DNA from: Gemmatimonas aurantiaca T-27
GTDB taxonomy: Bacteria; Gemmatimonadota; Gemmatimonadetes; Gemmatimonadales; Gemmatimonadaceae
Length of the DNA: 64,000 nucleotides
Direction of reading: 5' to 3'
Assembly: GCF_000010305.1 (NCBI RefSeq)
Contig: NC_012489.1
Coordinates: forward strand, 4,161,646-4,225,645
The notes beneath the pieces were generated by a model. It was not told the DNA's origin. It saw only the letters and a program-made list of their open reading frames with translations, and searched no databases. How positions within the stretch are numbered: the stretch's first letter is position 1; every line of letters starts with the position of its first letter. Positions 31,127 to 47,245 of this stretch are shown piece by piece. Made by a program: the position numbers and the translations under genes.

Positions 31127-31141
31127 ATAACAGTGTGTTAT
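31127..31141. promoter_or_regulatory. AbiEi-type operator, inverted repeat 1
   Basis: ATAAC-AGTGT-GTTAT is a perfect 5-base inverted repeat with a 5-base spacer, sitting just upstream of the -35 box of the abiE promoter. A second site of the same form follows at 31169-31185. Confidence 0.6.
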
Positions 31142-31144
31142 GTT

Positions 31145-31173
31145 TTGAGCTATTTCGCTCGCATATTCTATAA
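31145..31173 (+). promoter_or_regulatory. Probable sigma-70 promoter of the abiE-led operon
   Basis: A -35-like TTGAGC (31145-31150), a 17-base spacer and CTATAA (31168-31173; TATAAC with an 18-base spacer) lie in an AT-rich stretch. Transcription would start near 31181, leaving a leader of about 14 bases before the abiEi ATG. Confidence 0.5.
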
Positions 31174-31185
31174 CGTTCCGTTATA
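31169..31185. promoter_or_regulatory. AbiEi-type operator, inverted repeat 2
   Basis: TATAAC-GTTCC-GTTATA is a perfect 6-base inverted repeat overlapping the -10 element. Its centre lies 43 bases (about four turns) from that of repeat 1. AbiEi antitoxins are known to repress their own promoter by binding two such repeats. Confidence 0.65.
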
Positions 31186-31194
31186 TTTTAAGGA

Positions 31195-31779
31195 ATGCCG
31201 ACCGCCACGTACCGCGCGCTTTACGACATAGCAGAAGACCAAATGGGGTACGTGACGACGGGACAAGCAGGGACCGTCGGCGTGAGTGCCATGGCGCTCG
31301 TGATGATGACCCGGCGCGGCACGCTAGAGCGCGTGAGCCGCGGCGTCTACCGCCTAATCGACTTTCCTGTACAGCCGCTCGCGCAGTACATGCAGGCCAC
31401 CCTCTGGCCACATGGGCGCCGGGGCGTGCTCTCGCACGAGACGGCGTTGTCGCTCCACGAGCTCTCGGGCGTGGACCCCGCCAAGGTACATATCACCGTG
31501 CCGGCGGACTTCCGCGTCCAGCGAGCGGTGCCAAGCTATCTCATCGTGCACCGAGGGGACCTGACATCAGAGGATGTGACGCGGATCGACGGAATGCCGA
31601 TCACTACACCGGCCCGCACGATCCGCGACTGCATCCAGGTGCACCTAGGACCGGCACTCATCACCGAAGCAATCAAACAGGCCCGCACGAGCGGCCTCGT
31701 GAACGCCCCTACTGCGAGCGTGCTCGAGCGTGAACTCCGCATTGCTTCTGGCGCTCTCGGTGCGGGGGCGCGCCGGTGA
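31195..31779 (+). CDS. abiEi: AbiEi-type antitoxin / transcriptional repressor
   Basis: This is a 194-residue protein with an N-terminal winged HTH (about 5-60, YDIAEDQMGYVTTGQAGTVG and LERVSRGVYRLIDFP) and a C-terminal domain with VLSHETALSLHELSGVDPAK, VTRIDGMPITTPARTIRDCI and ITEAIKQARTSGLV, the AbiEi layout. In type IV AbiE systems the antitoxin represses the operon and counters the nucleotidyltransferase toxin. Two inverted repeats overlap the promoter just upstream. A GTGA overlap links it to the toxin gene. It is the first gene of the defence island and of the long same-strand run behind it. Confidence 0.88.
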   Translation: MPTATYRALYDIAEDQMGYVTTGQAGTVGVSAMALVMMTRRGTLERVSRGVYRLIDFPVQPLAQYMQATLWPHGRRGVLSHETALSLHELSGVDPAKVHITVPADFRVQRAVPSYLIVHRGDLTSEDVTRIDGMPITTPARTIRDCIQVHLGPALITEAIKQARTSGLVNAPTASVLERELRIASGALGAGARR

Positions 31780-32639
31780 GCGAGTCCTCGCGTGACGAGC
31801 AGGCGCGACCGACTCCGCCCTCCGTTGGGAAGCTCGAGAAGTACGTCCTCGCGCACGCGAACCGCGAGGGGCTCGCCGTTGGGCGCGTGCGGCACTGGAT
31901 CTCATTTATGATGCTCAGCGGCGCCCTCGACCGCGCCGCCGGACGACCGGCAGGTCCCCGCTTCATCGTGAAAGGAGGCGTAGCGCTCGAACTCCGCCTC
32001 CCGACGCGCGCCCGCGCGACGGAGGACTTGGACATCGTGGCAGTGTGCGACAAGGACGACCTTATCGCCGCACTCGACGAGGCACTGCGCGAGCCGTATC
32101 ACGACTGCACGTTCAGCCGCAGAGCCGAGACGCGCCCGCTCGGCGACCGAGCGCTCCGGGTGTGGGTGCAGATTGCCTATCGGTCCCAGCGGTGGGCGAC
32201 TATCCAAGTCGATCTCGCACGACCGGACGGTGCCGACGCCGAGACAGAGCGGCTGCCTAGCATCCCGCTGAGCAGCTTCGGGCTGATCGGGCCGGCTGAC
32301 GTCGCGTGTCTCTCGATGCGCTATCACGTCGCGCAGAAGTTCCACGGCATGACCAAGGTGCCGCGCCACGGCGGCGAGAACGATCGGTTTCGCGACGCCG
32401 TGGACCTGCTGCTGCTCCGCGAGCTCCTGCACGGCACCAGTCTCCAGGCAATCCGAGAGGCCTGCGAGGACACGTTCCGGATTCGAGCCGAGCACCCGTG
32501 GCCGCCGGCGATCGTCTTGCCGCCGAGTTGGCGAGAGCCCTACGCCGCGATGGCTCGGGCGCTCGGAATCCAGGAGACCAACCTAGACGCTGCCGAGCGC
32601 GCCCTTCGCGAGTTCCTCGCGGCGATCGAGGCAGCATGA
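31776..32639 (+). CDS. abiEii: AbiEii/AbiGii-family nucleotidyltransferase toxin
   Basis: This is a 287-residue toxin. The catalytic core FIVKGGVALELRL then ATEDLDIVA holds the G[GS] and DxD motifs of DNA-polymerase-beta-like nucleotidyltransferases. The later QKFHGMTKVP and DRFRDAVDLLLLREL segments are AbiEii hallmarks. Family members arrest growth, some by modifying tRNA, during phage infection. The start is the GTG at 31776, overlapping the antitoxin stop (GTGA). Its own stop overlaps the vsr start as ATGA, so the toxin-antitoxin pair is translationally coupled to the restriction-type genes behind it. Confidence 0.88.
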   Translation: MSESSRDEQARPTPPSVGKLEKYVLAHANREGLAVGRVRHWISFMMLSGALDRAAGRPAGPRFIVKGGVALELRLPTRARATEDLDIVAVCDKDDLIAALDEALREPYHDCTFSRRAETRPLGDRALRVWVQIAYRSQRWATIQVDLARPDGADAETERLPSIPLSSFGLIGPADVACLSMRYHVAQKFHGMTKVPRHGGENDRFRDAVDLLLLRELLHGTSLQAIREACEDTFRIRAEHPWPPAIVLPPSWREPYAAMARALGIQETNLDAAERALREFLAAIEAA

Positions 32640-33097
32640 CACACCAGCGATCGACGAAGCGAGCGAGCTGTCCGAGCCGCCCGAAGGCCACGCCAGAGCG
32701 GTCGGCACTCCTTGGCCGTGTCAGGCAGAGAGGGACGGCTCCCGAGATGGTCGTGCAGGAGATGTTGAGGCGTTTGAGCCACGCTCACTCGACCAACGTG
32801 CGAGGTATTCCGGGTTCGCCGGACATCGTCGCAGCTGATCACTCGCGGGCCGTCTTCGTCCACGGCTGCTACTGGCACCGCCATCCCGGATGCCCAGCGA
32901 GCAGCACACCGAGGAACAACGCGCAGTTCTGGAAGGAGAAGTTCGAGGCGAACGTGCGACGCGACCAGCGGAAAGCGAGGGAGCTCCGAAAGCTCGGATA
33001 TCGGGTGATGACCGTGTGGGAGTGTCAGACCAAGTCGCGGGAGAAGCGCGCACGACTCGAGCGTCGTCTCGACCGATTCTTCCGAGAGGAGAAGTAG
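32636..33097 (+). CDS. vsr: Very-short-patch repair endonuclease (Vsr family)
   Basis: This is a 153-residue endonuclease. Vsr signatures are IPGSPDIVAADHSRAVFVHG continuing CYWHRHPGC, then NNAQFWKEKFEANVRRDQRK and GYRVMTVWECQ. Vsr enzymes nick T:G mismatches that arise by deamination of 5-methylcytosine and are usually encoded beside C5 methyltransferases, as here. The Asp in SPDIV and the H/C metal ligands are present. The ATG at 32636 overlaps the AbiEii stop, and the TAG stop overlaps the GTG of the methyltransferase gene by one base. An Arg/Lys-rich N-terminal 30 residues precede the core. Confidence 0.9.
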   Translation: MTHQRSTKRASCPSRPKATPERSALLGRVRQRGTAPEMVVQEMLRRLSHAHSTNVRGIPGSPDIVAADHSRAVFVHGCYWHRHPGCPASSTPRNNAQFWKEKFEANVRRDQRKARELRKLGYRVMTVWECQTKSREKRARLERRLDRFFREEK

Positions 33098-34428
33098 TGT
33101 CACGCACAATCGCAAAACGGTTATCTGAGTCGCCAGACGGTGGACGGAAGCTGTCGGCCGGTCGCGATACACTGATTACAGCGCGTACACTGGAGTCGTA
33201 CAGGGTGTCATCGGACGGCCGTGCGATCGAGCGCGTCATCGCGCTGCGAGCCGGCGGCACGGCCTGCACACGAATCGCCATAAATCCCGACGAATCGCTC
33301 GAAGGATCCCAGGACGCGCTCGCCGATCGCTTCGATCGAGCATTCCTTTGCACGACATCACGCCCACGAATCGGGGCGCGCCAGCGAGAGGTTCGAGTCG
33401 TCGACCTGTTCTCGGGATGTGGTGCGATGTCCCTGGGTATTTGGGAGGCGAGTCGGGCCATTGGCGCGCGCATGGTGCCGGTTATGGCTCTCGACTTCAA
33501 CGACAAGGCCCTGCGCGTCTACGAAGACAATTTCCCGAATGTCTGGGCCATTTCGAAGCCGGTCGAGTCGATCCTCGACGGCGCGCTTGGAGCCCCTGCG
33601 TCGCCGGCAGAACGTGACCTGGTCGCTCGATTGGGACATGTGGATGTGCTGATAGGCGGCCCCCCCTGCCAAGGGCACAGCAATCTCAATAACCACACGC
33701 GGCGAGAGGATCCGAAGAACAAGCTCTACGACCGGATGGCGCGGTTCGCGGAACTTGTCGAGCCGACGCACGTCATAATCGAGAACGTGTCAGCGGTATT
33801 GCACGACAAGGGTAGGGTCGTTGATCGCACTATCGCACATCTCAAAAAGTTGAAGTACTCGATCGACAGCAAGGTGGTGGAGGCGGTCGCGATCGGAGTT
33901 CCACAGCGTCGGCGGCGCCACTTCGTCGTGGCGTCGCGGGAGATCCAACCCGATATCGACGCGACGATCGATGCGTTCACCCGAGGCGAGCGGAGCGTCT
34001 TCTGGGCGATCGGCGACCTCGCATGCGTGTCCCGAGACGACCTTTTCGATCAGACGGGCACACCTTCGTCAGTCAACCGAGGGCGAATCAAGTACCTCTT
34101 CGACAACAAGCTGTACGAGTTGCCCGACGAGGAGCGGCCGGACTGCCACCGACTCGAAGAACACAGCTACAAGTCGGTGTACGGCCGGCTCCGCCCGAAT
34201 AAGCCCGCACAGACCATCACGAGCGGATTCCTCAGCATGGGGCAGGGGCGGTACGTGCACCCCACGAAGCGGCGGACCATCACCCCCCACGAAGCTGCCC
34301 GTCTGCAGTTCATCCCCGATTTCTTCGATTTCGGTAGCGTCTCGAAGCGAACGGCGCTCGCGGAGATGATCGGGAACGCAGTGCCCTCCAAACTGGCGTA
34401 CGTCCTCGGAGTAGAGCTACTCCGGTGA
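33097..34428 (+). CDS. DNA (cytosine-5) methyltransferase, DruM-like
   Basis: This is a 443-residue enzyme with the ordered C5-methyltransferase motifs: VVDLFSGCGAMSLG (I), ALDFN (II), IGGPPCQGHS with catalytic Cys191 (IV), IIENVSAV (VI), QRRRRHFVVAS (VIII), and IGNAVPSKLA (X). About 85 residues precede motif I. I start at the GTG at 33097, because AGGAG lies about 8 bases upstream and an earlier ATG would run inside vsr. The target site is unknown. In type II Druantia the first gene is such a methylase, and the three genes that follow fit that order. It could equally protect host DNA for the nuclease downstream. Confidence 0.9.
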   Translation: MSRTIAKRLSESPDGGRKLSAGRDTLITARTLESYRVSSDGRAIERVIALRAGGTACTRIAINPDESLEGSQDALADRFDRAFLCTTSRPRIGARQREVRVVDLFSGCGAMSLGIWEASRAIGARMVPVMALDFNDKALRVYEDNFPNVWAISKPVESILDGALGAPASPAERDLVARLGHVDVLIGGPPCQGHSNLNNHTRREDPKNKLYDRMARFAELVEPTHVIIENVSAVLHDKGRVVDRTIAHLKKLKYSIDSKVVEAVAIGVPQRRRRHFVVASREIQPDIDATIDAFTRGERSVFWAIGDLACVSRDDLFDQTGTPSSVNRGRIKYLFDNKLYELPDEERPDCHRLEEHSYKSVYGRLRPNKPAQTITSGFLSMGQGRYVHPTKRRTITPHEAARLQFIPDFFDFGSVSKRTALAEMIGNAVPSKLAYVLGVELLR

Positions 34429-34602
34429 TGCTAGACGACCTCGGGCCAGACTGCCCTCCAGATGGAACGGCGCCAATCTGGGCTCGGTGTGTCTGGGCCA
34501 CGGCAGTCAGACCCCCGTCGTACCTTATTCGGTAGCAACGCTCGCCGACTATCTCCACCGGAACCCTCCACTCACGACTGACTGCCCGCGCCTCCTCGGC
34601 GC

Positions 34603-37590
34603 GTGCCAATGAGGAGCCCCACCTTGGCGATTCCTACAATGCAACCCGGCGTTTGGAAGGATTGGGATGCGGCCGCGTGGGGACAGGCGCTGCTCCGCCA
34701 TTACTTTGTGGGTCACGATGCAAGACCGGTCTCTCGACTCTCGATCAGCCCGGAGGAACTCGCGAAGGCGGCAGGCGCCTCTGATGGTGAGGCCGCCCCG
34801 GCGCGAGACGCCTTTCTGACGGCAGTCCGGTGCTCGGCAGCGGCCTTCCGCCGCCACCTCTCCATCGCCAGTCTCGAGCGCCACGCGTGGAATCGGCACG
34901 GGCCGCCTCCGTTCCTCGCCTACCTCTTCTTCACATGCTTCGCGGCGGCGTCCCTCGATGCCGATACGGCTGATGAGGGGGTGTTTCGCGAGCGGTTGCG
35001 TCAGTTGCTCGGCCACCACGAGGGGACGAGCTATGCGCTGGGCGATCTCTCTCGGCTCTGGGAGGCCTTCGCGGCGTGGCTGGAGGGTCGCCACGATGCC
35101 GGGGAACCATACCGAACGCTGAGCCTCCCAGATCGCGGCCGGGCGACTCTGATTGGGTATTCCGTTCGGCTCGCATTTCCTCGGCGCGAGGATCGCCTGA
35201 AGCTCAGAGCCCTCTTGGCCGCCTCGAGCGCGGGACCAGCGCCGACCGTACCGGAGGCCTTCCAAGCAATCGCGCGCGCGAGAGATCGCTTCTCGACCGA
35301 CTTCCGCCACGTGTTCGACCGTGCGCGCGCCGCGCTGGCGAGTGGGCGTGATGTGCCGGAGCTGCAGGCGCTATGGTCCGCGATCCTCGAAGCGGCTGCG
35401 CTCGCCGATCGGCGGGACAGCGGAGACGTGCGAATCCGCTACCGGCTCCTTGCCCAAGAGGACGAATTGGGGCGCCTCGAGCCGTTCGTCGTCACGGCGG
35501 GTGTCCCATCGGGCACTCGCCACAGTGCGCAATTCTCGCCGCTCGACGAACCGTTCGACCAATTCGACCACCTCGTCTGCGCCACGGACGGAAGCACGGG
35601 CTTGATTGCGAATCTCTTGCTGATGGACGCGCTGGCGGACAAGGTCCCTGGTCTCGGCGCGTCTCCTATCTCGCGCGCGGTACGAGATGGCGTGCTTCTC
35701 TTCCGGCAGGTGGACAGCGCTACCTGGGAACTAGCAGTGACGCGACCGACCGAGGGCAAGGTGCGTGCGCTGGTACAAAGCCGCCTGTCTGATGCCTTCA
35801 TGCGCTTGGTAAGCGGCCCGCAGCGTCACCCGCGCGAAGCTCGATTCGAAAGTTGGTGCGAGGTCGCTGCCTTTGACGTCACGGAACTGGCGGAAGCGCG
35901 TGAAAGCACCGCCCCCGAGCTGGCTTCCGTGCGCTGTCTACAGCGAATCGAGATCGGCCCTCAACTGCAGCTTGTCGGCGGCGTTCGCGTAGACGGCGGC
36001 TACCTCGGTCTGAGCGGGCTACTGCCCGAAGTGTATTGTGCCGAAGCAGAACACGCCTCGATGTTCCGTCTCTCGGAGGAATCGGGGAAGCGGCGCTCGA
36101 CTCACATCGCGACACTAGAACCCGTAGGCGAGCGTCCCGGAGTCTTCGGGTGGTCTCCGGGTCACGGCGATCTGGAAGGTCCTTACGTCTTCGCAGGGAC
36201 CCGGGACGGCCGTGTCGTTGCACCGCGCGAGGTCCTCTTCCACTCCCGCGGGCTGAGTCATGATTACGAGTATCCCACCGATCCCGCGCGCTGGCTCGTC
36301 GAAGACTGCAGCACTGACGTCGCGCCGGCTGGTCTGGCGTCGGAGATCTTCCTCGCTACCGGAATCGGCAGCCCCACACGGTTGCCGGCGGTCGATGCAC
36401 TTGCGTTGGAGAGTGTCCATGTACTGAGGAACCGCTCGGTTGACGACAATAACGAGCACGATCGACTAGTCGAGGCATTGGCGGCGATCTTGATGGCTAG
36501 AAAGGGAATCGCCGAATCCGAGCTGATCGAAATTCTCGGAAAGATCGTCCGGCAGGCTACTGGTTTCGCCGTGTGGGGGATCATCCGTGGGTGGGTAGAG
36601 GCCGGGTACCTCGACTGCCTCACGAGGCGGCAGTGGCGCGGCCGTGTCTACTTCGCGCGCCGCCCGCAGCTAGTACTGATTCCCGACGCCGACCTTGGGT
36701 CGATCCGCGTCGTGCTGCACGGACTAGCGCCCTACCGTCTGCGTTCTGCGGCGCGGGAGGCGTTCTCGCGCGCGGGGGCGACGCCATTGTCCGCCTCGAG
36801 CCTGTCGCCGTACGTACCGGCTCCGCAGGCGTGGCGGTTCACGTCGGTCGAACATGTCAACGCGTCGATCGCGGAGTATCGCGAGCTAGGCACGGTGGGG
36901 ATGCGCGAGCCCGAGGAGCTCGTCGGAGACTTCGACTCCGCGGTTTCTGACGAGGCGCCGCTGCCGCCTGGCTACGAGTGCCAGCGCGTCTGGGATTGGG
37001 CAGCGGGCGGATTCCGCCGCGCGCATGGGAGTGCCGCTCCGGACGAGGTGCGCATCGAGTGCCATACGCGCAGCAACGGGCCGGATCGATACACCATTGT
37101 GGCGGGCTGTCGACGGCGTACAACACTCTCGCGCTCCTGGGCGCTGTTGGATGGCTTCCGGCTCGCGGGACGGCGTGCCTTCACCCCCGTCGGCTCCGTC
37201 GCGATTGTGCGTTCGGGAGACGATGGTCCTCAAGTGCCCCTTCCCATCGCGCGAGTCATCGGCCTCCGCGCGGGCATCGTCGGCGGCCCGGCGGAGACTG
37301 CGACGCTCGGCCAGCACTACGCGAACGCCACGGACGGCCCGAGCGCGCGACGCTGGCTTCTCGCATGGCTGAGCGGCTCGAGGGCAGACGAGCAAGTGGC
37401 GCGGCGCTTCGCGTGGCTACGTGCTGCTACCGACGCGCGCGGCCTGGACACCGTTCCCATTCCAGCCGACCTTCGGCGGCGTCTGCGCGGACTCCACGCC
37501 CTCCCGGACGCGCTTTCCATCGCGGAGCGACGTATTCCCCGACACCTGCTCGCTCACGTGCGACGCGCCGTCGCGCTGACGGAGTCCTGA
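34603..37590 (+). CDS. Large accessory protein of the Druantia-like locus (DruF position), function unknown
   Basis: This is a 995-residue protein without a recognised enzymatic motif. The N-terminal 300 residues are helical. The middle (about 320-620) is mixed and beta-rich. Residues about 620-690 (LVEALAAILMARKGIAESEL; WVEAGYLDCLTRRQWRGRVY) look like a winged helix. The C-terminal 250 residues carry RWLLAWLSGSRADEQVARRF. It lies 174 bases after the methylase and 3 bases before the next large protein. Position between methylase and the coiled-coil/AAA-like protein matches the DruF slot of type II Druantia (inference from order, not homology). The start is ambiguous: GTG 34603, ATG 34609 or ATG 34639. 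Confidence 0.75.
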   Translation: MPMRSPTLAIPTMQPGVWKDWDAAAWGQALLRHYFVGHDARPVSRLSISPEELAKAAGASDGEAAPARDAFLTAVRCSAAAFRRHLSIASLERHAWNRHGPPPFLAYLFFTCFAAASLDADTADEGVFRERLRQLLGHHEGTSYALGDLSRLWEAFAAWLEGRHDAGEPYRTLSLPDRGRATLIGYSVRLAFPRREDRLKLRALLAASSAGPAPTVPEAFQAIARARDRFSTDFRHVFDRARAALASGRDVPELQALWSAILEAAALADRRDSGDVRIRYRLLAQEDELGRLEPFVVTAGVPSGTRHSAQFSPLDEPFDQFDHLVCATDGSTGLIANLLLMDALADKVPGLGASPISRAVRDGVLLFRQVDSATWELAVTRPTEGKVRALVQSRLSDAFMRLVSGPQRHPREARFESWCEVAAFDVTELAEARESTAPELASVRCLQRIEIGPQLQLVGGVRVDGGYLGLSGLLPEVYCAEAEHASMFRLSEESGKRRSTHIATLEPVGERPGVFGWSPGHGDLEGPYVFAGTRDGRVVAPREVLFHSRGLSHDYEYPTDPARWLVEDCSTDVAPAGLASEIFLATGIGSPTRLPAVDALALESVHVLRNRSVDDNNEHDRLVEALAAILMARKGIAESELIEILGKIVRQATGFAVWGIIRGWVEAGYLDCLTRRQWRGRVYFARRPQLVLIPDADLGSIRVVLHGLAPYRLRSAAREAFSRAGATPLSASSLSPYVPAPQAWRFTSVEHVNASIAEYRELGTVGMREPEELVGDFDSAVSDEAPLPPGYECQRVWDWAAGGFRRAHGSAAPDEVRIECHTRSNGPDRYTIVAGCRRRTTLSRSWALLDGFRLAGRRAFTPVGSVAIVRSGDDGPQVPLPIARVIGLRAGIVGGPAETATLGQHYANATDGPSARRWLLAWLSGSRADEQVARRFAWLRAATDARGLDTVPIPADLRRRLRGLHALPDALSIAERRIPRHLLAHVRRAVALTES

Positions 37591-37593
37591 CGC

Positions 37594-39858
37594 ATGCCGA
37601 CGACGAATCGTTCGTACTACATCGGACGTGTGAAGCGCGCGCCGCACCGCGGTGACGCGTACCTCTATGCGAGCATTGAGCCGCTCGTCGAATCCGATCC
37701 GACCGGCAGCCAGTGGCTTGGCCCTCTTCGCAATTCGGTGTCCAGCTTCCCCAAGCGCGGTCTCGTGCACTGGAACAAGGCGCCCTTCCAACTTCAGTTA
37801 GGGAGCCTGTGGCAGTTCACCATCGACGAGCACCCATCGGCCGTACGCAGTGATCAGTTGGAGCATTTCCAGCTGGAAGATCCGCAGGAGCCGATCGAGG
37901 TGTTGGACCTCCGCGGATGGAGCGACGAGGAGAGGCTGCGGAGCGCCATTACCAGCGACGGAATTCCTCTCTCACCGCCGCCACTCGCACGGCGCGTGCT
38001 CCTCTGGCTCGCGAGCGACGTCTACGTCGGACCCCTGCTGCTCAAGCCCGCGACGGCTCCAGGCTTCTGGGTACTCGACAGGCCCGACGCGCATATCGAC
38101 GCCGCCCGCATGCCTGTCTGCCGTCTCTCGGCGTCCGACATCAATCGCGTCCCGCTCGAGGGCGAGCGCTGGTTCGTCTCGCCCCGCCTGGAACTCGGCC
38201 GGAGCGCGGGCATCCAGAATTGGACGTCGGACGCGCAGGTCACACGAAGCATTCTCACCAGGCTGCGCAAGATGGACCCCGACTTGGTCAGGGCGATCGG
38301 CGTGACGGAGAGTGTGTTCCGCGAATATCTCGACCACGTCGAGGGTGGTCGGATGGGTAGCGCCGACCCGGCAGTTGAGCGAGCGCGGGCCGACCGCCTT
38401 CGCGGCGTGCGTGACGCGATCCAACGCGATGAGGTGTTGCTGACGGAGGCGGTGGAGGCTCTACTCGGGACCGAGGCGGTACGGACAGAGGTCCAGAGTC
38501 AGGCGCATGCCAAGATCGATGGGGAGGTGCACTCGCGGAGGGCCGAGATCGACGCGGCACTCTCGGACTCGACAAAAGAGCTGGCGCGAGTACAGGACAT
38601 TCTGAATGCGAAACGCACCGAAGTCGCTGCGTTGGATGCGGCGCTCCTCGAGAAGCGCGGAGAGCTCGAAGCGAAGGTCGCCTCTTTCGATCAGGAGGTC
38701 TCGGCTAGGCTGGAGGAGATTGCCCGCCGGCCCGAGGCCATCTTCGCGGAGACAGCGGTTATGAGGGCCGTGCTAACGCCTGGTTTTGCGAGGCCAGTCG
38801 GTGGCGGGAACGGTGGGGTGCCCGCGTATCCACCCGCGCGTGCGGTCTCCAGACAGGTGCGGGATTTCGGAGAGTCGACGCTAGAGTTGGGTGATGAGAC
38901 TGACGTCAGGCGGGCCCTCGCGGTACACGCCGGCGCCAGCGCGCTGAGCCTGCAGGCGATGTTGAGCCTGCACGCGATGTTCGTCTCGGGTGCGGCTCCA
39001 GTAGTGGTGGGGTCGTACGCATACGATCTCCTGCGCGCCTACGCGTCCGCCGTGGCGGGCGGGCGACTTCACTGGATCCCCATCGGAAGCTCCACGATGG
39101 AGCCGTACGACCTGCTGGGCCGTTTCGACGGGGCGTCCGGCCGAATTATTCCGAGCCCGTCCGGTCTTCTCGATGTCGCGCGCGACGCGACGCAGTCGGG
39201 TCGCCTTCATGTCGTGGTGCTCGAAGGGTTCAACAGGGCACCCTGTGAGGCGTATCTGTCGCCGATCCTGGAGGCTGCGCAAGCAGGCCGACTGGGTGAC
39301 GCGTTGCGCGTGATCCCTCTGGCGAATCCTGAGCTGATCTCGGGCGACGACCCCTATCGCGAAGTGGCCCGTCTGGTATGGCCTTCTAACGTGCTGATCG
39401 CGTGCCTCCCGAGCGACGGCAGCGTGACGTTGCCGGTGCCACCGTCTGTCTGGCGTTTCGTTGCGCTGGTCGATGCCGACGACCGCGATCGCACGCAGCT
39501 TCCATCTGTGCCGGCAGAAAACGGCGTCGCGCCGCGCACAGAGATCCCGCCGACGCTCTGGAAGGAGAGCGTGGCCACCGCCCAAGCCCACGCTGCCCAT
39601 GACCGGGACGAGGTGACAACGGTCGCCCGTGCTCTGTCGCTCTCCGCTCGTGACGCAAGAGACGCGGTCCGTGTGCGGGAGGTGTTGTGCGCCAATGGGC
39701 TGCCTCACGGAGACGCAACCAGCGTCGCTCTCGTCGCCACGTTGATCGCGCGGTCTGGGTCAGATGCGAAGGCGATCGACGAGGGCCTACGCACGGCCGG
39801 CGTCGCGGTGCCCAGCTGGCAAACCATTCGTGCCGAGGCGCAACGCCTCCGCAGCTAA
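37594..39858 (+). CDS. Coiled-coil protein with a degenerate AAA-like domain (DruG position)
   Basis: This is a 754-residue protein. Residues 1-250 are an unrecognised mixed domain. A coiled coil follows (about 255-375, Glu/Ala/Leu heptads such as SDSTKELARVQDILNAKRTE). Residues about 440-610 resemble a McrB/MoxR-type AAA module (APVVVGSYAYDLLRAYA; MEPYDLLGRFDG; VVVLEGFNRAPCEAYLSPIL). The Walker A lysine is absent (GSYAYD instead of GxxGxGKS), and Walker B reads LEGFN rather than DEMN, so ATP hydrolysis is unlikely. It starts 3 bases after the preceding gene and 35 bases before the giant helicase, matching the DruG slot of type II Druantia. It probably acts as a structural or sensor subunit. 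Confidence 0.8.
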   Translation: MPTTNRSYYIGRVKRAPHRGDAYLYASIEPLVESDPTGSQWLGPLRNSVSSFPKRGLVHWNKAPFQLQLGSLWQFTIDEHPSAVRSDQLEHFQLEDPQEPIEVLDLRGWSDEERLRSAITSDGIPLSPPPLARRVLLWLASDVYVGPLLLKPATAPGFWVLDRPDAHIDAARMPVCRLSASDINRVPLEGERWFVSPRLELGRSAGIQNWTSDAQVTRSILTRLRKMDPDLVRAIGVTESVFREYLDHVEGGRMGSADPAVERARADRLRGVRDAIQRDEVLLTEAVEALLGTEAVRTEVQSQAHAKIDGEVHSRRAEIDAALSDSTKELARVQDILNAKRTEVAALDAALLEKRGELEAKVASFDQEVSARLEEIARRPEAIFAETAVMRAVLTPGFARPVGGGNGGVPAYPPARAVSRQVRDFGESTLELGDETDVRRALAVHAGASALSLQAMLSLHAMFVSGAAPVVVGSYAYDLLRAYASAVAGGRLHWIPIGSSTMEPYDLLGRFDGASGRIIPSPSGLLDVARDATQSGRLHVVVLEGFNRAPCEAYLSPILEAAQAGRLGDALRVIPLANPELISGDDPYREVARLVWPSNVLIACLPSDGSVTLPVPPSVWRFVALVDADDRDRTQLPSVPAENGVAPRTEIPPTLWKESVATAQAHAAHDRDEVTTVARALSLSARDARDAVRVREVLCANGLPHGDATSVALVATLIARSGSDAKAIDEGLRTAGVAVPSWQTIRAEAQRLRS

Positions 39859-39893
39859 CGGCGCGGTACACATCACATTCCGGGAGGGCACCC

Positions 39894-42800
39894 TTGCAGG
39901 ACCCCATCGGCGGTTTCCAGCGCATCCGCGATCTTTACATCACATACCTCGAGACGGCATTCCGCATCCGCGACCCCGGCGTGTCGCGGGAACGGCGCGC
40001 GCTCCTGGAGCGGCCGAATACGTTCTGTACCGAGCCACTGATCGAGCCGTTGCCGCGCTACAGGAGCGTCGACTGGCTGCTCCACGAGCTGGCTAAGGCC
40101 GATCCCAAGGATTCACGGCTGCCTGGCTTCGACGTGCGTGAGCGTGCCGCATTCGCCGACCTGGCACTCGCGGGCCTCCTTGACTCGAAGCCCGCCAGGG
40201 AAGACAACGAATCCCGACTCGCTGAGTACGAGCTATACGAGCACCAGGCGCAGATGCTCTGGCGCGGAGTGCAACCCGGGCACCCCGGCATCGTCACATC
40301 GGGGACGGGCTCGGGAAAGACAGAATCATTCCTTTTGCCTGTGCTCGCCATGCTGGCGAAGGAGGCGGTGCGGTGGCCGGCACCGAGCGCGGACTACCTC
40401 AAGCGGCGCTGGTGGCAAACGGCGTCTGGCGAGCCCTATCCTAAGTACGACGGTGATGACGGCGTGCCGGATCGACCGACGGCCCGTTCGAAGAGCGCAT
40501 CTCCCTTCAAACTGCAGCGCGTGGGTGAGGCCGCCGGGCGCCCGGCCGCGGTGCGCGCGTTGATCCTCTACCCGATGAACGCGCTCGTCGAGGACCAGCT
40601 CGCGCGGATCCGTCGTGCGCTCGATTCCGATCTCGCGCGGCGGGTCATGGACCGCCACTTCGCCGGCAATCGCATCTTCTTCGGCCGCTACACCAGCGAC
40701 ACCCCCGTCACGGGCTACCATAAGCACCCACGCGCGGGCACCAAGGAGCACGAACGTCGTAACCGAAAGCTCGCCGAGCTGTTCCGCGCGTCAACCGCAA
40801 TTCAGCACGCGCAGGAGCGCGCGCGGATGATGGATAGAGAGCGAGGCGCCTCATCAGAGGACGTGCGCTTTCTCTTTCCGACTGTCGATGGCGGGGAGCT
40901 GACGTCGCGGTGGGACATGCAGGAGACGCCGCCCGATCTGCTGATCACAAACGTGAGCATGCTGAACGCCATTCTCGCGCGCGAGGTGGACTCTCCAATC
41001 CTCGACCGCACGCGAGATTGGCTGACGAGCGACGACGACGCTTACTTTTTCCTGGTTCTCGACGAGCTCCACCTGCAGCGCGGCTCGGCCGGCACCGAGA
41101 CGTCGTACCTGCTGCGCCTGCTTTTCGAGCGCCTAGGACTGACCGACCCGGCGCATCGTCATAAGCTGCGCATCCTCGCCTCCAGCGCCTCGCTGCCGAC
41201 GGAGGGTGAGGCCGGGCAGAGCAGTCTCGCGTATCTCTGGGACATGTTCGGCCGCCATGGCCTTCAGGCTGGGCCGCGTCGTGAGGTCGAGAATCCCCGA
41301 GAACGCTGGCACCACGCCGTCGTGCCTGGTGTGACGGTGGACGTTGAGCCATCGTCGCTCCAGCCGCTGGACCCGGCGCCCTTTTTCGCCCTGCTCGAGG
41401 CAGCGGGCGGCGACCTCCAGGACGAAGCCACGGCGCCCGCACCAGCCGAGGCCGAGGTCGAATGGCGAGGGGTTGCACGGGCACTCGGCGGTGAGAGGAT
41501 GGAAGCAGGCGATCTGGACGGAGTCGTGGCCGCCTGCGTACGTGAGGCCGGCGCACGCATCGCACACGCCTGTTGGAGCGAGGAGGAGAGGCGCGCTCGC
41601 GCGATGCCGCTGTCGAACATCGCGCGGCGCGTGTTCGGGCGTTCGGATGCTGATACGCTCTGCGCCGCGCGCGCGCTTCTGCTGGTCCGGGGCGCTGGAG
41701 ATGCGTGGGGCCGTTGGTGGGCCACCGAGCCCCCGACGGCGCCTTCGTTTCGCATCCACACCTTCTTCCGAAGCATCGAAGGTCTCTTCGCACCGGTCGG
41801 CGACCTCAGCGGTGTGCCTCCCCAGTGGCGATCGGCGAGCCGCCTTGTCGGGGAGCTCTCCGTCGAGCGTGGACAACGCTTTGCTCGCGTCGGGAGCGGG
41901 GATCCTGGGAGCCGCCTTGTCGAGCTGGTCTACTGCGAGTCGTGTGGCGAGCTGTTTCTCGGCGGCCGACGGGGAGGGCGCGAGACCGCAATCGAGCTCC
42001 TGCCGGCGGAACCCAACGTCGACAACCTCCCCGAGTCGGCCGGGCAGGATTTCTTCGAGACACTCTCCGCAGATGAATACGCGGTCTTCTGGCCTGTCGA
42101 GTCTTGGCCGGGCGTTCTGCCGAGCCCGAGGGATGACGTCCACGTTGGGGAGTGGAAGCGCGCCTACCTCGACCCCATCTCGGCCACGATCCAGTTTCCG
42201 CGAATCGGTAACGGAGTGCCCGAGGGACGCATCACCGGCTATGTCTGGGAGCGTGGCGATAGCCAGGATCGCCACAAGCGCCGAAAGGAATCGCCGGGGA
42301 CAGCGGTGCCTTACGAGTGTCCCGCCTGCGGCTCCGACTATTACTGGCGAAACGCGCCGCTGCGCCTCTCACCAATCCGGAACTTCCGAGCGGGTTTTGC
42401 TAAGACGACGCAGCTGCTCGCGACCGAGCTGTTCGATCTGCTAAGACTGCGCCAGCGTGAGCCGAAGCTGGTGGCCTTCTCGGACAGTCGTCAGGACGCC
42501 GCGAAGGCGGCACTCGATATCGAGCGCCGACATCATGAGGACCTCCGTCGCGAAGTGGTCGTGGAGAGCTTGCGCGCCGTTGCGGGAGCGCGCCCGGACG
42601 GGACGGCTCTGCAAGCGGAAAAGGAACGCCTGACGAAGGAGGCGCAGGCCCACGCCGTCGCGGGCAATCTTGCCGCGGCCTTCGCACTTAAGCCGCGGCT
42701 CGACGAACTCGAGACCGCCCTGGCCAACGGTGCGGATGGAGCCGATCTGCCGGTGGCGGTGGTCCTCGAGAGCACGCGAGAGAACCCGCGCTTCTTCGGC

Positions 42801-45800
42801 TCGCGCGCGACGCGCGAGCCACTGCGGCCACTTCTCGCGGAGTTCGTCAAGCTCGGTATTCACCCAACGGACCCGACGGGTACGAGGCGAATCAAGCTGC
42901 CCACCGGCGAGAGCGTTACGTGGGACTCGTTGTTCGTGATCGGCGAGGACGGCACGCCGGACTGGAAGGATGACGCCGTCGAGCAGGACAAGCTCAATGC
43001 CGCGCGCCAAGCGCTCGTTGGGGAAATGCAGCGGCTCGTGACCGGCGTGATCTTCAGCAAAACGTACTTCGCGCTAGAGGAGACGGGCGTTGCGTATCCT
43101 TCCGTCGGTCCGAGCGTCGCGAGCGAAGACCGAGAGTTGGCGGACGCCTTCCTGAGGGTATTCGCCGATTCCTATCGGCTCGTCGACAGTCAATACGAGG
43201 ACGCAGGGCAGAAAGACCCTTGGCGCAGTGCATTGGACATCCGCACCAATCAGCGGGCGCGTCGCTTGGCGTCGAACATCTGGGCACCCGACCAGGTGAA
43301 CGCGGGGCTCGAACGGGTGCTGAAGCTCCTCGCAAAGGCGGGACACCCGGAGGGCCTCGTCCTGACCTCCTCGCTCAGAATTCGCCTCGTGGAGGAGTCG
43401 GACCCCTACTGGCGGTGCGGGCGGTGCTCGCGCGTGCACCTTCACCGTGGAGTAAAGGTGTGCACGCGATGCTTCCAGCCGTTGCCGGAGGAGCAGAGCG
43501 GTGTGAGCGGCGACCTGCACGGTGAGAGCTACTTGGCAAAGCGTATCGAGCGCGACAACGCGACGTTCCGACTCCGCTGCGAGGAGCTCACCGGACAGAC
43601 GGAGGACCCGGCGGACCGGCAGCGTCGCTTCAAGAACATCGTGCTCGACAGCGACGGACGTGTGGACCGGCGGCTGCGCGAGGCAGCACGCGTGATCGAC
43701 ATGCTCGCCGTGACCACGACGATGGAGGTTGGCATCGACATCGGGCCCTTGCAGGCCGTCTTCCAGGCGAACATGCCACCCCAGCGGTTCAACTACCAAC
43801 AGCGCGTTGGCCGGGCTGGCCGCCGCCGTCAGGCGTTCTCCATGGCGCTGACCGTATGCCGATCCAAGAGCCACGATCTGCATTACTTCTGGCACCCTGA
43901 GGCCATCACGGGCGACCCGCCGCCGCCGCCATTTCTCACGAAGCGGCAGCCGACGGCGGCGAAGCGATTTCTGCGCAAAGCGTGGCTGTGGGCTGCGTTT
44001 CACAAGATCCGGTCAGACCAGGGCGTTGGGTACGCCGGCGACGATCTGTCGGACATCCACGGCGAGTACGTGCCCGCGGGCGACTACTTCGACGCAGCCA
44101 ACGGCTGGAGAGCACGTTTGGCGGGAGCACTTGACGCGACGCGCGACTACCGCGCGCGCGCGCTGGCGGTGCTGGTTGAGGATTCGGACCTTGGCAGAAG
44201 CCCAGAGCTCGAAGGGCTCGAGAGCGATTGCCTACTCCTCGAGATCGACAAGGTGAGCTCAAGTGGTGTGAGACAGGAGGGCCTCGCACACACACTCGCC
44301 GAGGCGGGTCTACTCCCGATGTATGGAATGCCGACGCGTGTGAGGAATCTCTACTTGGGGGACACGACGCGACCTGACGACCAGTTCTGGCGGACGTGGC
44401 GGAAGGTGGATCGCGATCTCGACCTGGCAGTGTTCGAGTTCGCCCCCGGCTCGGTGTTGACCAAGGACAAGCAGGAACACCTGTGCGTGGGCTTCACCGG
44501 CGCGCTTCCCGACTACATCTCGCGGAGCGGCCCGGTGCCGGAGATCAAACCCAGAGAGGATGCTTTCGCCGATCCCTTCTGGATGGTGCAGTGCGGGTAC
44601 TGCGGCGCGTGGCATCGGTTCGATGAGGATCCAAGCGCCACGGGGGCGGAATGCGGCTCGTGCGAACGAGTTCTCGACGTGACGACTGCCGGCGAGTGTC
44701 GCACACCCAACGGGTTCCGGACGGACTTCTGGCCACGCGAGGTCGAGGAGCAGCTCCTCACAGCGGGGCGACACCGCCTGAACACCGCGGAGGGCAAGGC
44801 AGTGCGGCTTGAGGCCGAGAAGAAGTCGAACCTGAGCTATGCCTATCAGTCGCAGTCGAGGCTTTACCGTCTGAATCGCGGACGTCTGGACGCGGCGGGC
44901 GGAGGTCGATGGCTCGGCTTCGACGTCACCGCAGGGGCACAGCGCTATGGGCGTGGCGGACGTGCGCGGCTCCTCGACCAGTGGATCGCCACCAACGACA
45001 AGCTCCCTGTACCAGTGGGCTTCGACCCAAACCCGGGTGTGGCGCCGCTGCAGAGTATCTGGCTGGCCGCTCCGAAAACGACGGACGCACTCTTCGTCGC
45101 ACCGAGTTCGGTGGCGCGAGGCCTCCGTTCGCACATGGTAGGCGCCGGTCAACAGCGCATCACGTCAGTGCGTGCCGCCGCGATCTCGGCCGCCTACATG
45201 CTGGCCAATCGTGCGGCGCTGGAGCTCGACATCGATCCCGAGGAGTTCGACGTCCTCGAGCCTCGTATATACCGGGCCTGGAACGGTCAGGCGGTACCGC
45301 TGCTTCAGATCGCCGACCACCTCGTGAACGGCGCAGGATTCGTGGAGCGTCTGGCGGCTCAGGGGAGTGGTGGCCGACCGCTGGTCGCGGAGCTCGTCTC
45401 ATCCATCGTTCGCGACGAAAGCCGGTACCCGCTTTCGGAGCTGTTGCGGAAGGACGCACACCAGAACCACCCGACCGAGTGCGATCAGGCCTGCTACCGC
45501 TGCCTGCAGCGGTACAGCAACCAGTCGTACCACGGTCTGTTGGACTGGCGGCTCGGCCTCGCCTTCCTGCAGCTGCTCGACGACCCGGAGTGGAGGTGCG
45601 GCCTCGATGGCGACTTCTCGAGCCCCGCACTGCGTGATTGGACCGCGCTCGCGCGCCGGTACGTCGAGGATCTCGCGCGGTTCTCCCCTGTGGAGCAGCG
45701 CGACGCTGCCGGGCTCGTCGCGTTCCGGATTCAGGGCGTGGGGGACTGGGCGGTGGTCGTGCACCCGCTCTGGGATACCGACGCGCTCGAGGGCATTGTC

Positions 45801-45923
45801 GGGAAGGCGGTCGACGAGATCGAACGCACCAGCGGGAGCGTGCCCGTGTTCGTCGACACCTTCGAACTCGCCCGCCGGCTGGTCTCGGTGCGCCAGGACC
45901 TGCTCAACCCCAGGCCGGCGTGA
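39894..45923 (+). CDS. Giant DEAH-type helicase with DUF1998-like C-terminus (DruE-like)
   Basis: This is a 2009-residue helicase. SGTGSGKTESF (about residue 140) is the Walker A, LYPMNALVEDQLARIRR motif Ia, FFLVLDELHLQRGS (about 389) the DEAH-type box, ILASSASLP motif III, TTTMEVGIDIG motif V, and QQRVGRAGRRRQAF (about 1304) motif VI. Four Zn-ribbon-like Cys clusters occur (CPACG; CGRCSRVH with CTRC; CGYCGAWHRF with CGSC; ECDQACYRC). The last belongs to a DUF1998-type end. Size and order match Druantia DruE. A TTG at 39894, six bases after GGGAGGG, is the best start. Helicase-driven DNA handling during phage defence is expected; the mechanism is unknown. Confidence 0.85.
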   Translation: MQDPIGGFQRIRDLYITYLETAFRIRDPGVSRERRALLERPNTFCTEPLIEPLPRYRSVDWLLHELAKADPKDSRLPGFDVRERAAFADLALAGLLDSKPAREDNESRLAEYELYEHQAQMLWRGVQPGHPGIVTSGTGSGKTESFLLPVLAMLAKEAVRWPAPSADYLKRRWWQTASGEPYPKYDGDDGVPDRPTARSKSASPFKLQRVGEAAGRPAAVRALILYPMNALVEDQLARIRRALDSDLARRVMDRHFAGNRIFFGRYTSDTPVTGYHKHPRAGTKEHERRNRKLAELFRASTAIQHAQERARMMDRERGASSEDVRFLFPTVDGGELTSRWDMQETPPDLLITNVSMLNAILAREVDSPILDRTRDWLTSDDDAYFFLVLDELHLQRGSAGTETSYLLRLLFERLGLTDPAHRHKLRILASSASLPTEGEAGQSSLAYLWDMFGRHGLQAGPRREVENPRERWHHAVVPGVTVDVEPSSLQPLDPAPFFALLEAAGGDLQDEATAPAPAEAEVEWRGVARALGGERMEAGDLDGVVAACVREAGARIAHACWSEEERRARAMPLSNIARRVFGRSDADTLCAARALLLVRGAGDAWGRWWATEPPTAPSFRIHTFFRSIEGLFAPVGDLSGVPPQWRSASRLVGELSVERGQRFARVGSGDPGSRLVELVYCESCGELFLGGRRGGRETAIELLPAEPNVDNLPESAGQDFFETLSADEYAVFWPVESWPGVLPSPRDDVHVGEWKRAYLDPISATIQFPRIGNGVPEGRITGYVWERGDSQDRHKRRKESPGTAVPYECPACGSDYYWRNAPLRLSPIRNFRAGFAKTTQLLATELFDLLRLRQREPKLVAFSDSRQDAAKAALDIERRHHEDLRREVVVESLRAVAGARPDGTALQAEKERLTKEAQAHAVAGNLAAAFALKPRLDELETALANGADGADLPVAVVLESTRENPRFFGSRATREPLRPLLAEFVKLGIHPTDPTGTRRIKLPTGESVTWDSLFVIGEDGTPDWKDDAVEQDKLNAARQALVGEMQRLVTGVIFSKTYFALEETGVAYPSVGPSVASEDRELADAFLRVFADSYRLVDSQYEDAGQKDPWRSALDIRTNQRARRLASNIWAPDQVNAGLERVLKLLAKAGHPEGLVLTSSLRIRLVEESDPYWRCGRCSRVHLHRGVKVCTRCFQPLPEEQSGVSGDLHGESYLAKRIERDNATFRLRCEELTGQTEDPADRQRRFKNIVLDSDGRVDRRLREAARVIDMLAVTTTMEVGIDIGPLQAVFQANMPPQRFNYQQRVGRAGRRRQAFSMALTVCRSKSHDLHYFWHPEAITGDPPPPPFLTKRQPTAAKRFLRKAWLWAAFHKIRSDQGVGYAGDDLSDIHGEYVPAGDYFDAANGWRARLAGALDATRDYRARALAVLVEDSDLGRSPELEGLESDCLLLEIDKVSSSGVRQEGLAHTLAEAGLLPMYGMPTRVRNLYLGDTTRPDDQFWRTWRKVDRDLDLAVFEFAPGSVLTKDKQEHLCVGFTGALPDYISRSGPVPEIKPREDAFADPFWMVQCGYCGAWHRFDEDPSATGAECGSCERVLDVTTAGECRTPNGFRTDFWPREVEEQLLTAGRHRLNTAEGKAVRLEAEKKSNLSYAYQSQSRLYRLNRGRLDAAGGGRWLGFDVTAGAQRYGRGGRARLLDQWIATNDKLPVPVGFDPNPGVAPLQSIWLAAPKTTDALFVAPSSVARGLRSHMVGAGQQRITSVRAAAISAAYMLANRAALELDIDPEEFDVLEPRIYRAWNGQAVPLLQIADHLVNGAGFVERLAAQGSGGRPLVAELVSSIVRDESRYPLSELLRKDAHQNHPTECDQACYRCLQRYSNQSYHGLLDWRLGLAFLQLLDDPEWRCGLDGDFSSPALRDWTALARRYVEDLARFSPVEQRDAAGLVAFRIQGVGDWAVVVHPLWDTDALEGIVGKAVDEIERTSGSVPVFVDTFELARRLVSVRQDLLNPRPA

Positions 45924-47131
45924 CGCCTCTGCCCGAGCCGCTCGTACAGTGCCGAGTGCCTGCGACGTTCTCCCCATCGCAGCTCGCGTTCGGGGAGCAG
46001 TGTCTGCTGCGAGCCGTGCTAGGATCCACGCGCGACCTTCCGACTCTAACGGCACACCCGGCAGCCGCCCTCGGTAGCGTCTTTCACAAGCTGCTAGAAT
46101 TGGCGGTGCGCGGAGAGATCCCGCGGACCGGGACGCCCGGCGAGGACGCCGAGCGCACTCTCGACCGCCTGCTCGATGCGGAGGACGCACGCCTCGCCGC
46201 CATGCGGCCGGGCGATCCACCGCGGCTCCGGGAGGTGTTTCCGCCGCTCATGTGGCGCCGGAAACGTCGCGTCGTGCTCGACCTCGCGGAGAAGTACCTC
46301 TCGGGGGCTGTGCCCAGAGCCGCCACCAGCTCCGGGGGCGGGGCTCGGAACGCGAGGGACCTTCACCAGAACGGCGGCTGGGCCGAGGTGCAGATCGAGG
46401 TGCCCGCGCTGCGGTTGTGGGGGAGGGCGGACATGATTCAGCGGACCGCCGGCGACGTCGTGATACGCGATCTGAAGACAGGGCGCGTGGTCACCAACGA
46501 CGGGGACGTGCTGCCACACATCGAACGCCAGATGCGACTGTACGGTGCGATGGCGCACGCGGTCTGGCCCTCGGCACAGGTCTCGCTGCTCGTGGACCAC
46601 GGTGTCGAGCGCGAGGTCGGGTTCGCGCGTGAGCACGAGGCGGACGTCCTGAAGTGGCTCAGCGATGTCCTCGCGCGGCTGCCCGCGGAGAGCGATGTCA
46701 ATGCGGAGGATCTCGCGACACCCGGGGAGGCATGCGACGGATGCGCGCACCGCCACATCTGTCCCGCGTACAGGAAGTTGGCATTCGGCTTCTGGCGTGG
46801 TGAGGCGCCGATGCGCATGCCACTGGACACGTGGGGCGAGGTGATGGCGATTAACCCGCGTGGCGCACTCGCCGACCTCACCTTGCACGACGCTGCGGGC
46901 CGTACCGTGAAAGTATTCGGTTTGGCTGCGTTCCGCGTCTCGTCGATGCAGCCCGGCGATCCGGTCTGGCTCTTCGGGCTGCGCACCCGAGACAAACGTG
47001 GCGGCCCCGCGTCGTGGCGCCACCCGCACAACTTCTTCGAAGTGGCGGACGACGATCCATTCGCGCGGGCTTGGACACTGGAGGTCTTCGCGAGCAACTC
47101 CCCGATGTCCGCCACTCGATCACCCGGTTAG
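45920..47131 (+). CDS. Cas4/AddB-like Fe-S PD-(D/E)XK nuclease with C-terminal OB-like domain
   Basis: This is a 403-residue nuclease. FSPSQLAFGEQC opens a RecB-type fold. LGSVFHKLLE gives the conserved His56, GRADMI (Asp171) and VIRDLKTGR (D184, K186) the metal/catalytic core, and QMRLYGAM the QxxxY motif. CDGCAHRHIC (C272, C275, C281), with C28, can hold a 4Fe-4S cluster as in Cas4/AddB. Residues about 303-375 look like an OB-fold (WGEVMAINPRGALADLTLHD). The start is GTG 45920, overlapping the helicase stop as GTGA, so it is coupled to DruE. It probably supplies nuclease activity to the system; the canonical Druantia gene sets I know of do not name this gene. Confidence 0.83.
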   Translation: MTPLPEPLVQCRVPATFSPSQLAFGEQCLLRAVLGSTRDLPTLTAHPAAALGSVFHKLLELAVRGEIPRTGTPGEDAERTLDRLLDAEDARLAAMRPGDPPRLREVFPPLMWRRKRRVVLDLAEKYLSGAVPRAATSSGGGARNARDLHQNGGWAEVQIEVPALRLWGRADMIQRTAGDVVIRDLKTGRVVTNDGDVLPHIERQMRLYGAMAHAVWPSAQVSLLVDHGVEREVGFAREHEADVLKWLSDVLARLPAESDVNAEDLATPGEACDGCAHRHICPAYRKLAFGFWRGEAPMRMPLDTWGEVMAINPRGALADLTLHDAAGRTVKVFGLAAFRVSSMQPGDPVWLFGLRTRDKRGGPASWRHPHNFFEVADDDPFARAWTLEVFASNSPMSATRSPG

Positions 47132-47245
47132 CGGCGCGAGCTACCGAGGCGCTCGCCTAGGGTAAATGGCGCATGCGCTGCGCCACAGTAGATGGACCGG
47201 TGGAGAAGCGATGCGAGTCGGCTTACACGACCAACACTACAGAGC

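What the first reader, a model, noticed from the sequence alone, without database searches (positions are those of the whole stretch)
31127..47131. AbiE toxin-antitoxin genes lead a 16-kb composite operon: Vsr, C5 methylase, Druantia-like core and a coupled nuclease
Eight same-strand genes run from abiEi to the Fe-S nuclease. abiEi/abiEii (GTGA), abiEii/vsr (ATGA), vsr/methylase (one base) and helicase/nuclease (GTGA) overlap, and the next gaps are 174, 3 and 35 bases. Methylase, two accessory proteins and a 2009-residue DUF1998 helicase match type II Druantia by order. A toxin-antitoxin pair translationally coupled to the methylase, under a two-repeat AbiEi-like operator, would make the antitoxin a candidate repressor of the whole defence operon. 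I do not know this full arrangement as a described system.
Basis: partly seen in the sequence, partly recalled or inferred. Interest (0 to 1): 0.85.

Follow-up and report, generated by a model that had tools for sequence, protein, structure and literature searches.

The report
AbiE toxin-antitoxin heading a Druantia operon
A bacterium carries a known multi-gene anti-phage system (type II Druantia) with an unrelated toxin-antitoxin pair joined in front of it in one gene string, so the antitoxin, which normally switches off only its own gene, may also set the dose of the whole defence system; the parts are known, this particular coupling is unusual and untested.

Summary
Eight same-strand genes run from abiEi (31195) to a PD-(D/E)XK nuclease (47131), with the stated overlaps. 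PADLOC models identify AbiEi, AbiEii, Vsr, DruM, DruF, DruE (2149 bits) and DruK. The 754-aa protein is a DruG homologue: its predicted structure matches the McrB AAA+ domain and it lacks a Walker A motif. So this is a type II Druantia (also called type IV CoCoNuT) plus DruK and Vsr. A GmrSD gene follows and was missed.

The composite is not a conserved system. Among 84 full-length DruE2-type loci, a C5-methylase occurs in 71 and Vsr in 44, but abiE only in the window. A more distant relative has abiE nearby, but frameshifted and split off by a transposase remnant.

The operator claim holds well: ATAAC-N5-GTTAT occurs exactly twice in the 4.64-Mb genome, both at the abiE promoter. It recurs before homologous stand-alone abiEi genes, so it came with abiE.

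Co-directional genes just behind abiEii in other genomes are enriched for defence genes (13/20 versus 6/30 controls; exploratory), so the window may be one case of abiE heading a defence operon. That AbiEi represses Druantia is plausible but not shown.

The parts
31127..31141 (.). AbiEi operator copy 1, ATAACAGTGTGTTAT
   Evidence: perfect ATAAC-N5-GTTAT palindrome; only two copies in the genome; same palindrome before homologous abiEi in L134 and L138, variant in L137
31170..31184 (.). AbiEi operator copy 2, ATAACGTTCCGTTAT, overlapping the presumed -10
   Evidence: 43 bp centre to centre from copy 1
31145..31174 (+). presumed abiE promoter: TTGAGC (31145-31150), 18 nt, TATAAC (31169-31174)
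   Evidence: read from sequence; below the cut of the simple promoter scan; inferred
31195..31779 (+). abiEi: antitoxin and autorepressor (wHTH, AbiEi_4)
   Evidence: PADLOC 6.4e-66, Pfam PF13338 3.5e-13
31776..32639 (+). abiEii: nucleotidyltransferase toxin, GTGA overlap with abiEi
   Evidence: PADLOC 1.2e-58, PF08843 1.2e-21; GG...DLD motif present; only AbiEii match in the genome
32636..33097 (+). vsr: very short patch repair endonuclease, ATGA overlap with abiEii
   Evidence: PADLOC 1.2e-22, PF03852 2.5e-15; FVHGCYWHRH motif present
33097..34428 (+). druM: C5-cytosine methyltransferase, one-base overlap with vsr
   Evidence: DruM2 8.7e-159, PF00145; PCQ and ENV motifs present
   Evidence: DruF2 1.5e-57; homologues in 79 of 84 DruE2 loci; AF2 model pLDDT 76 without a PDB match at E<=0.001
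37594..39858 (+). druG: inactivated McrB/CnuB-like AAA+ protein with long coiled coil
   Evidence: no PADLOC hit; iterative HMM links it to druG of other loci; AF2 model matches McrB and MoxR-clade AAA+, E about 1e-6; no GK[ST]
39894..45923 (+). druE: YprA-family helicase with DUF1998-type Cys cluster
   Evidence: DruE2 2149 bits over the full length; DEAD and Helicase_C
45920..47131 (+). druK: RecB/Cas4-like PD-(D/E)XK nuclease with Cys cluster, GTGA overlap with druE
   Evidence: DruK 6.4e-20, PF12705 2.9e-28; DruK in 34 of 84 loci
47246..49336 (+). GmrSD-type restriction enzyme with C-terminal DUF5655 (ORF from 47192), likely last gene of the unit
   Evidence: GmrSD_N 1.4e-33, GmrSD_C 3.4e-24, DUF5655 9.6e-12; same strand, no terminator-like site between

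Best explanation
The locus is a type II Druantia system (type IV CoCoNuT) of the Vsr-DruM-DruF-DruG-DruE-DruK form that has acquired a complete AbiE type IV toxin-antitoxin module, with its own promoter and operator, at its 5' end. The start codon of vsr now overlaps the stop codon of abiEii. Inferred working: DruM marks host cytosines as self; Vsr repairs the T:G mismatches that arise when those 5-methylcytosines deaminate; DruE, with the inactive AAA+ scaffold DruG, DruF and the nuclease DruK, attacks unmarked phage DNA. AbiEi binds the two palindromes over the promoter and represses transcription of abiE and, by read-through and translational coupling, of at least vsr and druM and probably the rest. 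Loss of AbiEi in infection or stress would raise the Druantia dose and free the AbiEii toxin as an abortive back-up. Shown here: gene identities, overlaps, operator uniqueness and its conservation with abiE, rarity of the coupling. Not shown: a single transcript, repression of Druantia by AbiEi, phage protection.
For: Family hits for all components except DruG. DruG by iterative HMM and by McrB-like fold without Walker A, matching the inactivated CnuB described for Druantia I/II (PMC12458937). Same vsr-druM-druF-druG-druE-druK order without abiE in L022/L073 and L081. Operator unique in the genome and conserved before homologous abiEi genes at about 45% protein identity. AbiEi-family antitoxins repress through such repeats (PMC7319586). 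No terminator-like site on the + strand between genes from 31195 to 49336. AbiE precedes other defence genes within 60 nt in several genomes, more often than controls.
Against: The 195-nt gap before druF could hold its own promoter. In many relatives druF begins its own unit, with vsr and druM elsewhere or on the other strand. No expression data. Within Druantia loci the coupling is one of a kind, so there is no evolutionary conservation to show that it matters.
Confidence: 0.6

Rival explanations
1. Plain defence-island accretion: abiE landed in front of a Druantia operon, the overlap is a by-product, and the two systems work and are regulated independently (druF-druK from a promoter in the 195-nt gap).
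For: abiE absent from the other 83 DruE2 loci; abiE relatives in the phylum are mostly stand-alone bicistrons; vsr/druM position is fluid between loci.
Against: The GTGA and ATGA overlaps leave no separate leader for vsr; no terminator-like site; the operator lies ahead of the whole string.
Confidence: 0.3
2. AbiE serves as an addiction module that stabilises the island: losing the operon would free the toxin. Any regulation of Druantia is incidental.
For: Complete AbiE pair; DruE2 is absent from the other sampled genomes of the genus and the island sits at a variable site beside an ABC-F gene.
Against: Addiction does not need translational coupling to vsr; no loss-rate data.
Confidence: 0.25
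3. The eight genes form a distinct conserved composite defence system.
For: Tight linkage in the window; a second Gemmatimonadota genome (G238, L015) has abiE upstream of druM.
Against: abiE only in the window among 84 DruE2 loci; the PF08843 scan of 53 DruE genomes found abiE next to the Druantia genes only in G000 and G238; in G238 abiEii is frameshifted and a DDE transposase remnant lies before druM.
Confidence: 0.04

Closest known systems
Druantia type II / type IV CoCoNuT (Payne 2021 PMC8565338; Bell 2025 PMC12458937)
   Same: DruM, DruF, DruG, DruE present in order; DruG is an inactivated McrB/CnuB homologue with coiled coil
   Different: abiE at the 5' end with overlap; Vsr and DruK added; outside Proteobacteria, to which the 2021 PADLOC paper confined type II
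AbiE type IV toxin-antitoxin (Streptococcus agalactiae AbiE; M. tuberculosis Rv2827c-Rv2826c, PMC7319586)
   Same: AbiEi wHTH repressor and AbiEii nucleotidyltransferase in an overlapping pair; inverted repeats over the promoter, two sets as for Rv2827c
   Different: shorter palindromes (15 bp); the pair continues by overlap into vsr-druM instead of ending the operon
BrxR (PMC9122601) and RptR (PMC12255303) defence-island repressors
   Same: repressor encoded in the island acting at repeats over an island promoter; RptR is the first gene and its island also contains a toxin-antitoxin pair
   Different: here the candidate repressor is the antitoxin itself, not a dedicated regulator
Dcm-Vsr pairs (general knowledge)
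   Same: vsr overlaps the C5-methylase gene
   Different: the methylase is DruM of Druantia, not an orphan or type II RM methylase

Membership tests
Druantia type II | DruE helicase of type II | tested here: met
   DruE2 2149 bits, residues 1-2003 of 2009
Druantia type II | DruM cytosine methylase | tested here: met
   DruM2 8.7e-159
Druantia type II | DruF | tested here: met
   DruF2 1.5e-57
Druantia type II | DruG | tested here: met
   no PADLOC DruG hit at E<=0.01, but homologous to druG-position proteins of 45 other loci by iterative HMM, one of which (L024) weakly hits DruG2; so met by homology, not by the PADLOC model
Druantia type II | protects against phage | not testable with these tools
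   -
Type IV CoCoNuT | inactivated McrB-like (CnuB) AAA+ with coiled coil | tested here: met
   AF2 model matches McrB 6hz4 and NorQ at about 1e-6; long helix 294-378; no GK[ST] in the family alignment; model pLDDT 73, pTM 0.39
Druantia type IV | DruE and DruF with DruL, lacking DruM and DruG | tested here: not met
   DruM and a DruG homologue present, no DruL hit
AbiE type IV toxin-antitoxin | AbiEi wHTH antitoxin directly before AbiEii nucleotidyltransferase | tested here: met
   GTGA overlap
AbiE type IV toxin-antitoxin | inverted repeats over its promoter | tested here: met
   searches show the repeats; binding and autoregulation themselves not tested
AbiE type IV toxin-antitoxin | toxin growth inhibition neutralised by AbiEi | not testable with these tools
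   1 of 84 DruE2 loci; 53-genome AbiEii scan

The most novel reading that the evidence does not exclude
AbiE modules act as portable, self-regulated heads of defence operons: by landing just upstream of unrelated systems (Druantia II here; Gabija GajA, a HamA-HamB fusion, TmtA, TOTE-type primase-helicases, YprA helicases and Mrr elsewhere), they place those systems under the AbiEi antitoxin, so an event that removes AbiEi both raises the defence dose and releases the toxin.
Probability: 0.22. Interest if true: 0.7.

Novelty: new variant of a known kind. Interest (0 to 1): 0.45.

Why it matters
How defence systems are switched on is poorly known; dedicated repressors of defence islands (BrxR, RptR) were described only recently. 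An antitoxin in that role would join dose control and abortive back-up in one protein. The operator here is unique in a 4.6-Mb genome, so the claim is directly testable with one reporter and one binding assay. The survey also shows that a separate vsr gene accompanies about half of DruE2 loci, which I did not find described in the papers searched.

Tried and rejected
Close plasmid relatives of AbiEii: none. G238 as a second instance of coupling: rejected on closer reading (abiEii split over two frames, DDE_5 remnant before druM). AbiEii matches sharing a contig with Druantia in other genomes: contig lengths and coordinates exclude all of them as operon neighbours; G314/L045 is on the same contig, but several kb and an unrelated transporter-like gene lie between. 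First operator-pair pattern used the wrong spacing and found nothing; repeated with the single palindrome. DruF fold: no PDB match. Promoter scan uninformative: it also misses the presumed abiE promoter.

Full report
What is there. The window is G000:C1:4161646-4225645 of a single 4,636,964-bp contig; the size suggests Gemmatimonas aurantiaca T-27 (from memory, not tested). Translation confirms every ORF, overlap and gap named in the finding. Two refinements: druF more likely starts at TTG 34624, seven bases after GAGGAG, so the gap after the methylase is 195 nt; and a ninth same-strand gene, a GmrSD restriction enzyme with DUF5655, follows the nuclease with no terminator-like site between.

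Identity. PADLOC and Pfam give AbiEi, AbiEii, Vsr, DruM, DruF, DruE and DruK. The 754-aa protein has no model hit, but an iterative HMM joins it to the protein in the druG position of 45 other loci. An AlphaFold2 model from 22 of these sequences (mean pLDDT 73, pTM 0.39) has an N-terminal beta-rich part, a coiled coil and a C-terminal domain that Foldseek matches to McrB (6hz4) and the MoxR-clade NorQ at about 1e-6. The family alignment shows no Walker A GK[ST]. That fits the inactivated CnuB-like protein which Bell and colleagues describe for Druantia I/II, regrouped by them as type IV CoCoNuT (PMC12458937). The DruF model has no PDB match.

Comparative survey. A DruE alignment pulled 80 loci from 84,980 species genomes, to which plasmid and phylum loci were added. 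Local HMMs gave gene order. Of 84 loci with a full-length DruE2-type gene, druF is in 79, a C5-methylase in 71, druG in 46, vsr in 44, druK in 34, and abiE in one, the window. Order and strand vsr-druM-druF-druG-druE-druK also occur in a Binatia MAG (L081) and, with druF in pieces, on a Rubrobacter plasmid. These counts rest on local HMMs seeded with window proteins, so divergent vsr, druG or druK are undercounted, and 17 of the 84 loci have less than 9 kb upstream of druE. AbiEii absence was checked independently with PF08843 over 53 DruE-bearing genomes and a broader AbiEii HMM. The one other case, G238, has abiEi and abiEii upstream of druM, but abiEii is split over two frames and a DDE transposase remnant intervenes. 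So abiE is an add-on to an otherwise known system.

Operator. Two perfect copies of ATAAC-N5-GTTAT lie at 31127 and 31170; the second overlaps a TATAAC that would be the -10 of the abiE promoter. The whole genome holds no other copy. Homologous abiEi genes elsewhere in the phylum (44-49% identity), which belong to stand-alone abiE pairs, carry the same palindrome at -24 (L134) and -8 (L138), and a variant at -78 (L137); L132 instead carries two GAC-N5-GTC sites. The operator therefore belongs to the abiE module. AbiEi proteins studied so far repress through inverted repeats over their promoter (PMC7319586). The step from there to control of Druantia is inference, resting on the overlaps and the absence of a visible terminator.

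A wider pattern, exploratory. In 111 AbiEii loci from Druantia-bearing genomes and Gemmatimonadota, 31 have a same-strand ORF within 60 nt downstream. Of the 20 of these with at least 230 aa or so, 13 have a PADLOC hit at E<=1e-6, a second AbiEi not counted: GajA, a HamA-HamB fusion, TmtA, YprA/DruE3-type helicases, TOTE-type primase-helicases, Mrr, HsdS, GmrSD-like, HNH, PDC-S64. Controls: 6 of 20 genes upstream of abiEi (13/20 against 6/20 gives Fisher two-sided p 0.056) and 0 of 10 opposite-strand downstream genes; p about 0.0025 for 13/20 against the pooled 6/30. Caveats: the sample is partly drawn from Druantia-bearing genomes, ORF calling is simple, the last control was added after the first comparison was seen, several loci come from related species, and PADLOC hits such as cysteine desulfurase or HNH are weak evidence of defence. 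The pattern was found while looking at these loci and needs an independent count.

Surroundings. DruE2 is absent from the other sampled genomes of the genus. The island lies between a DUF2911 gene and an ABC-F gene; the ABC-F gene is present in 15 of 17 genus genomes, similarity ends sharply at 50638, and two relatives carry degenerate copies of the ABC-F 3' end next to it, which suggests a hotspot for integration. No such second copy is in the window.

Known regulators for comparison. BrxR represses a BREX island through inverted repeats (PMC9122601), and RptR, first gene of an E. coli island that holds a DarTG pair inside a type I restriction system, represses the island promoter through palindromes (PMC12255303). 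An operon-head repressor is thus a known principle; an antitoxin in that place before Druantia was not found in the papers searched.

Verdict. A type II Druantia operon with Vsr and DruK, joined at its 5' end by an intact AbiE module with its own operator. Parts known, coupling rare and real, regulatory consequence plausible and easy to test.

Noticed in passing
window 47192-49336: GmrSD restriction enzyme with C-terminal DUF5655, same strand, directly after druK; probably part of the same unit.
   Followed up: partly
L125, L148, L152, L153, L155, L158, L228, L239 (AbiEii loci): abiEii is followed within 60 nt on the same strand by diverse defence genes (GajA, HamA-HamB fusion, TmtA, TOTE primase-helicase, YprA helicase, Mrr, PDC-S64); enriched over controls in a small exploratory count.
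   Followed up: partly
84 DruE2-type loci (L022-L107 and window): A separate vsr gene is found in 44 of 84 Druantia II-like loci, often near the methylase but in varying order and strand.
   Followed up: partly
window 50638; L266 13597-13702; L263 14716-14766: Similarity to relatives ends exactly at the 3' end of an ABC-F gene, and relatives carry degenerate partial copies of that end: a probable integration hotspot.
   Followed up: partly
L155:437-2572 (-): A single 711-aa protein matches HamA (7-199) and the C-terminal part of HamB (190-707): a fused, shortened Hachiman behind abiE.
   Followed up: no
L181 (IMGVR_UViG_3300037046_000297): A contig classed as viral carries dcm-vsr-druF-druG-druE with 54% identity in DruE.
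   Followed up: no
L015 (G238:C165): abiE with split abiEii, a DDE transposase remnant and a tRNA-like sequence upstream of another, more distant Druantia locus.
   Followed up: partly
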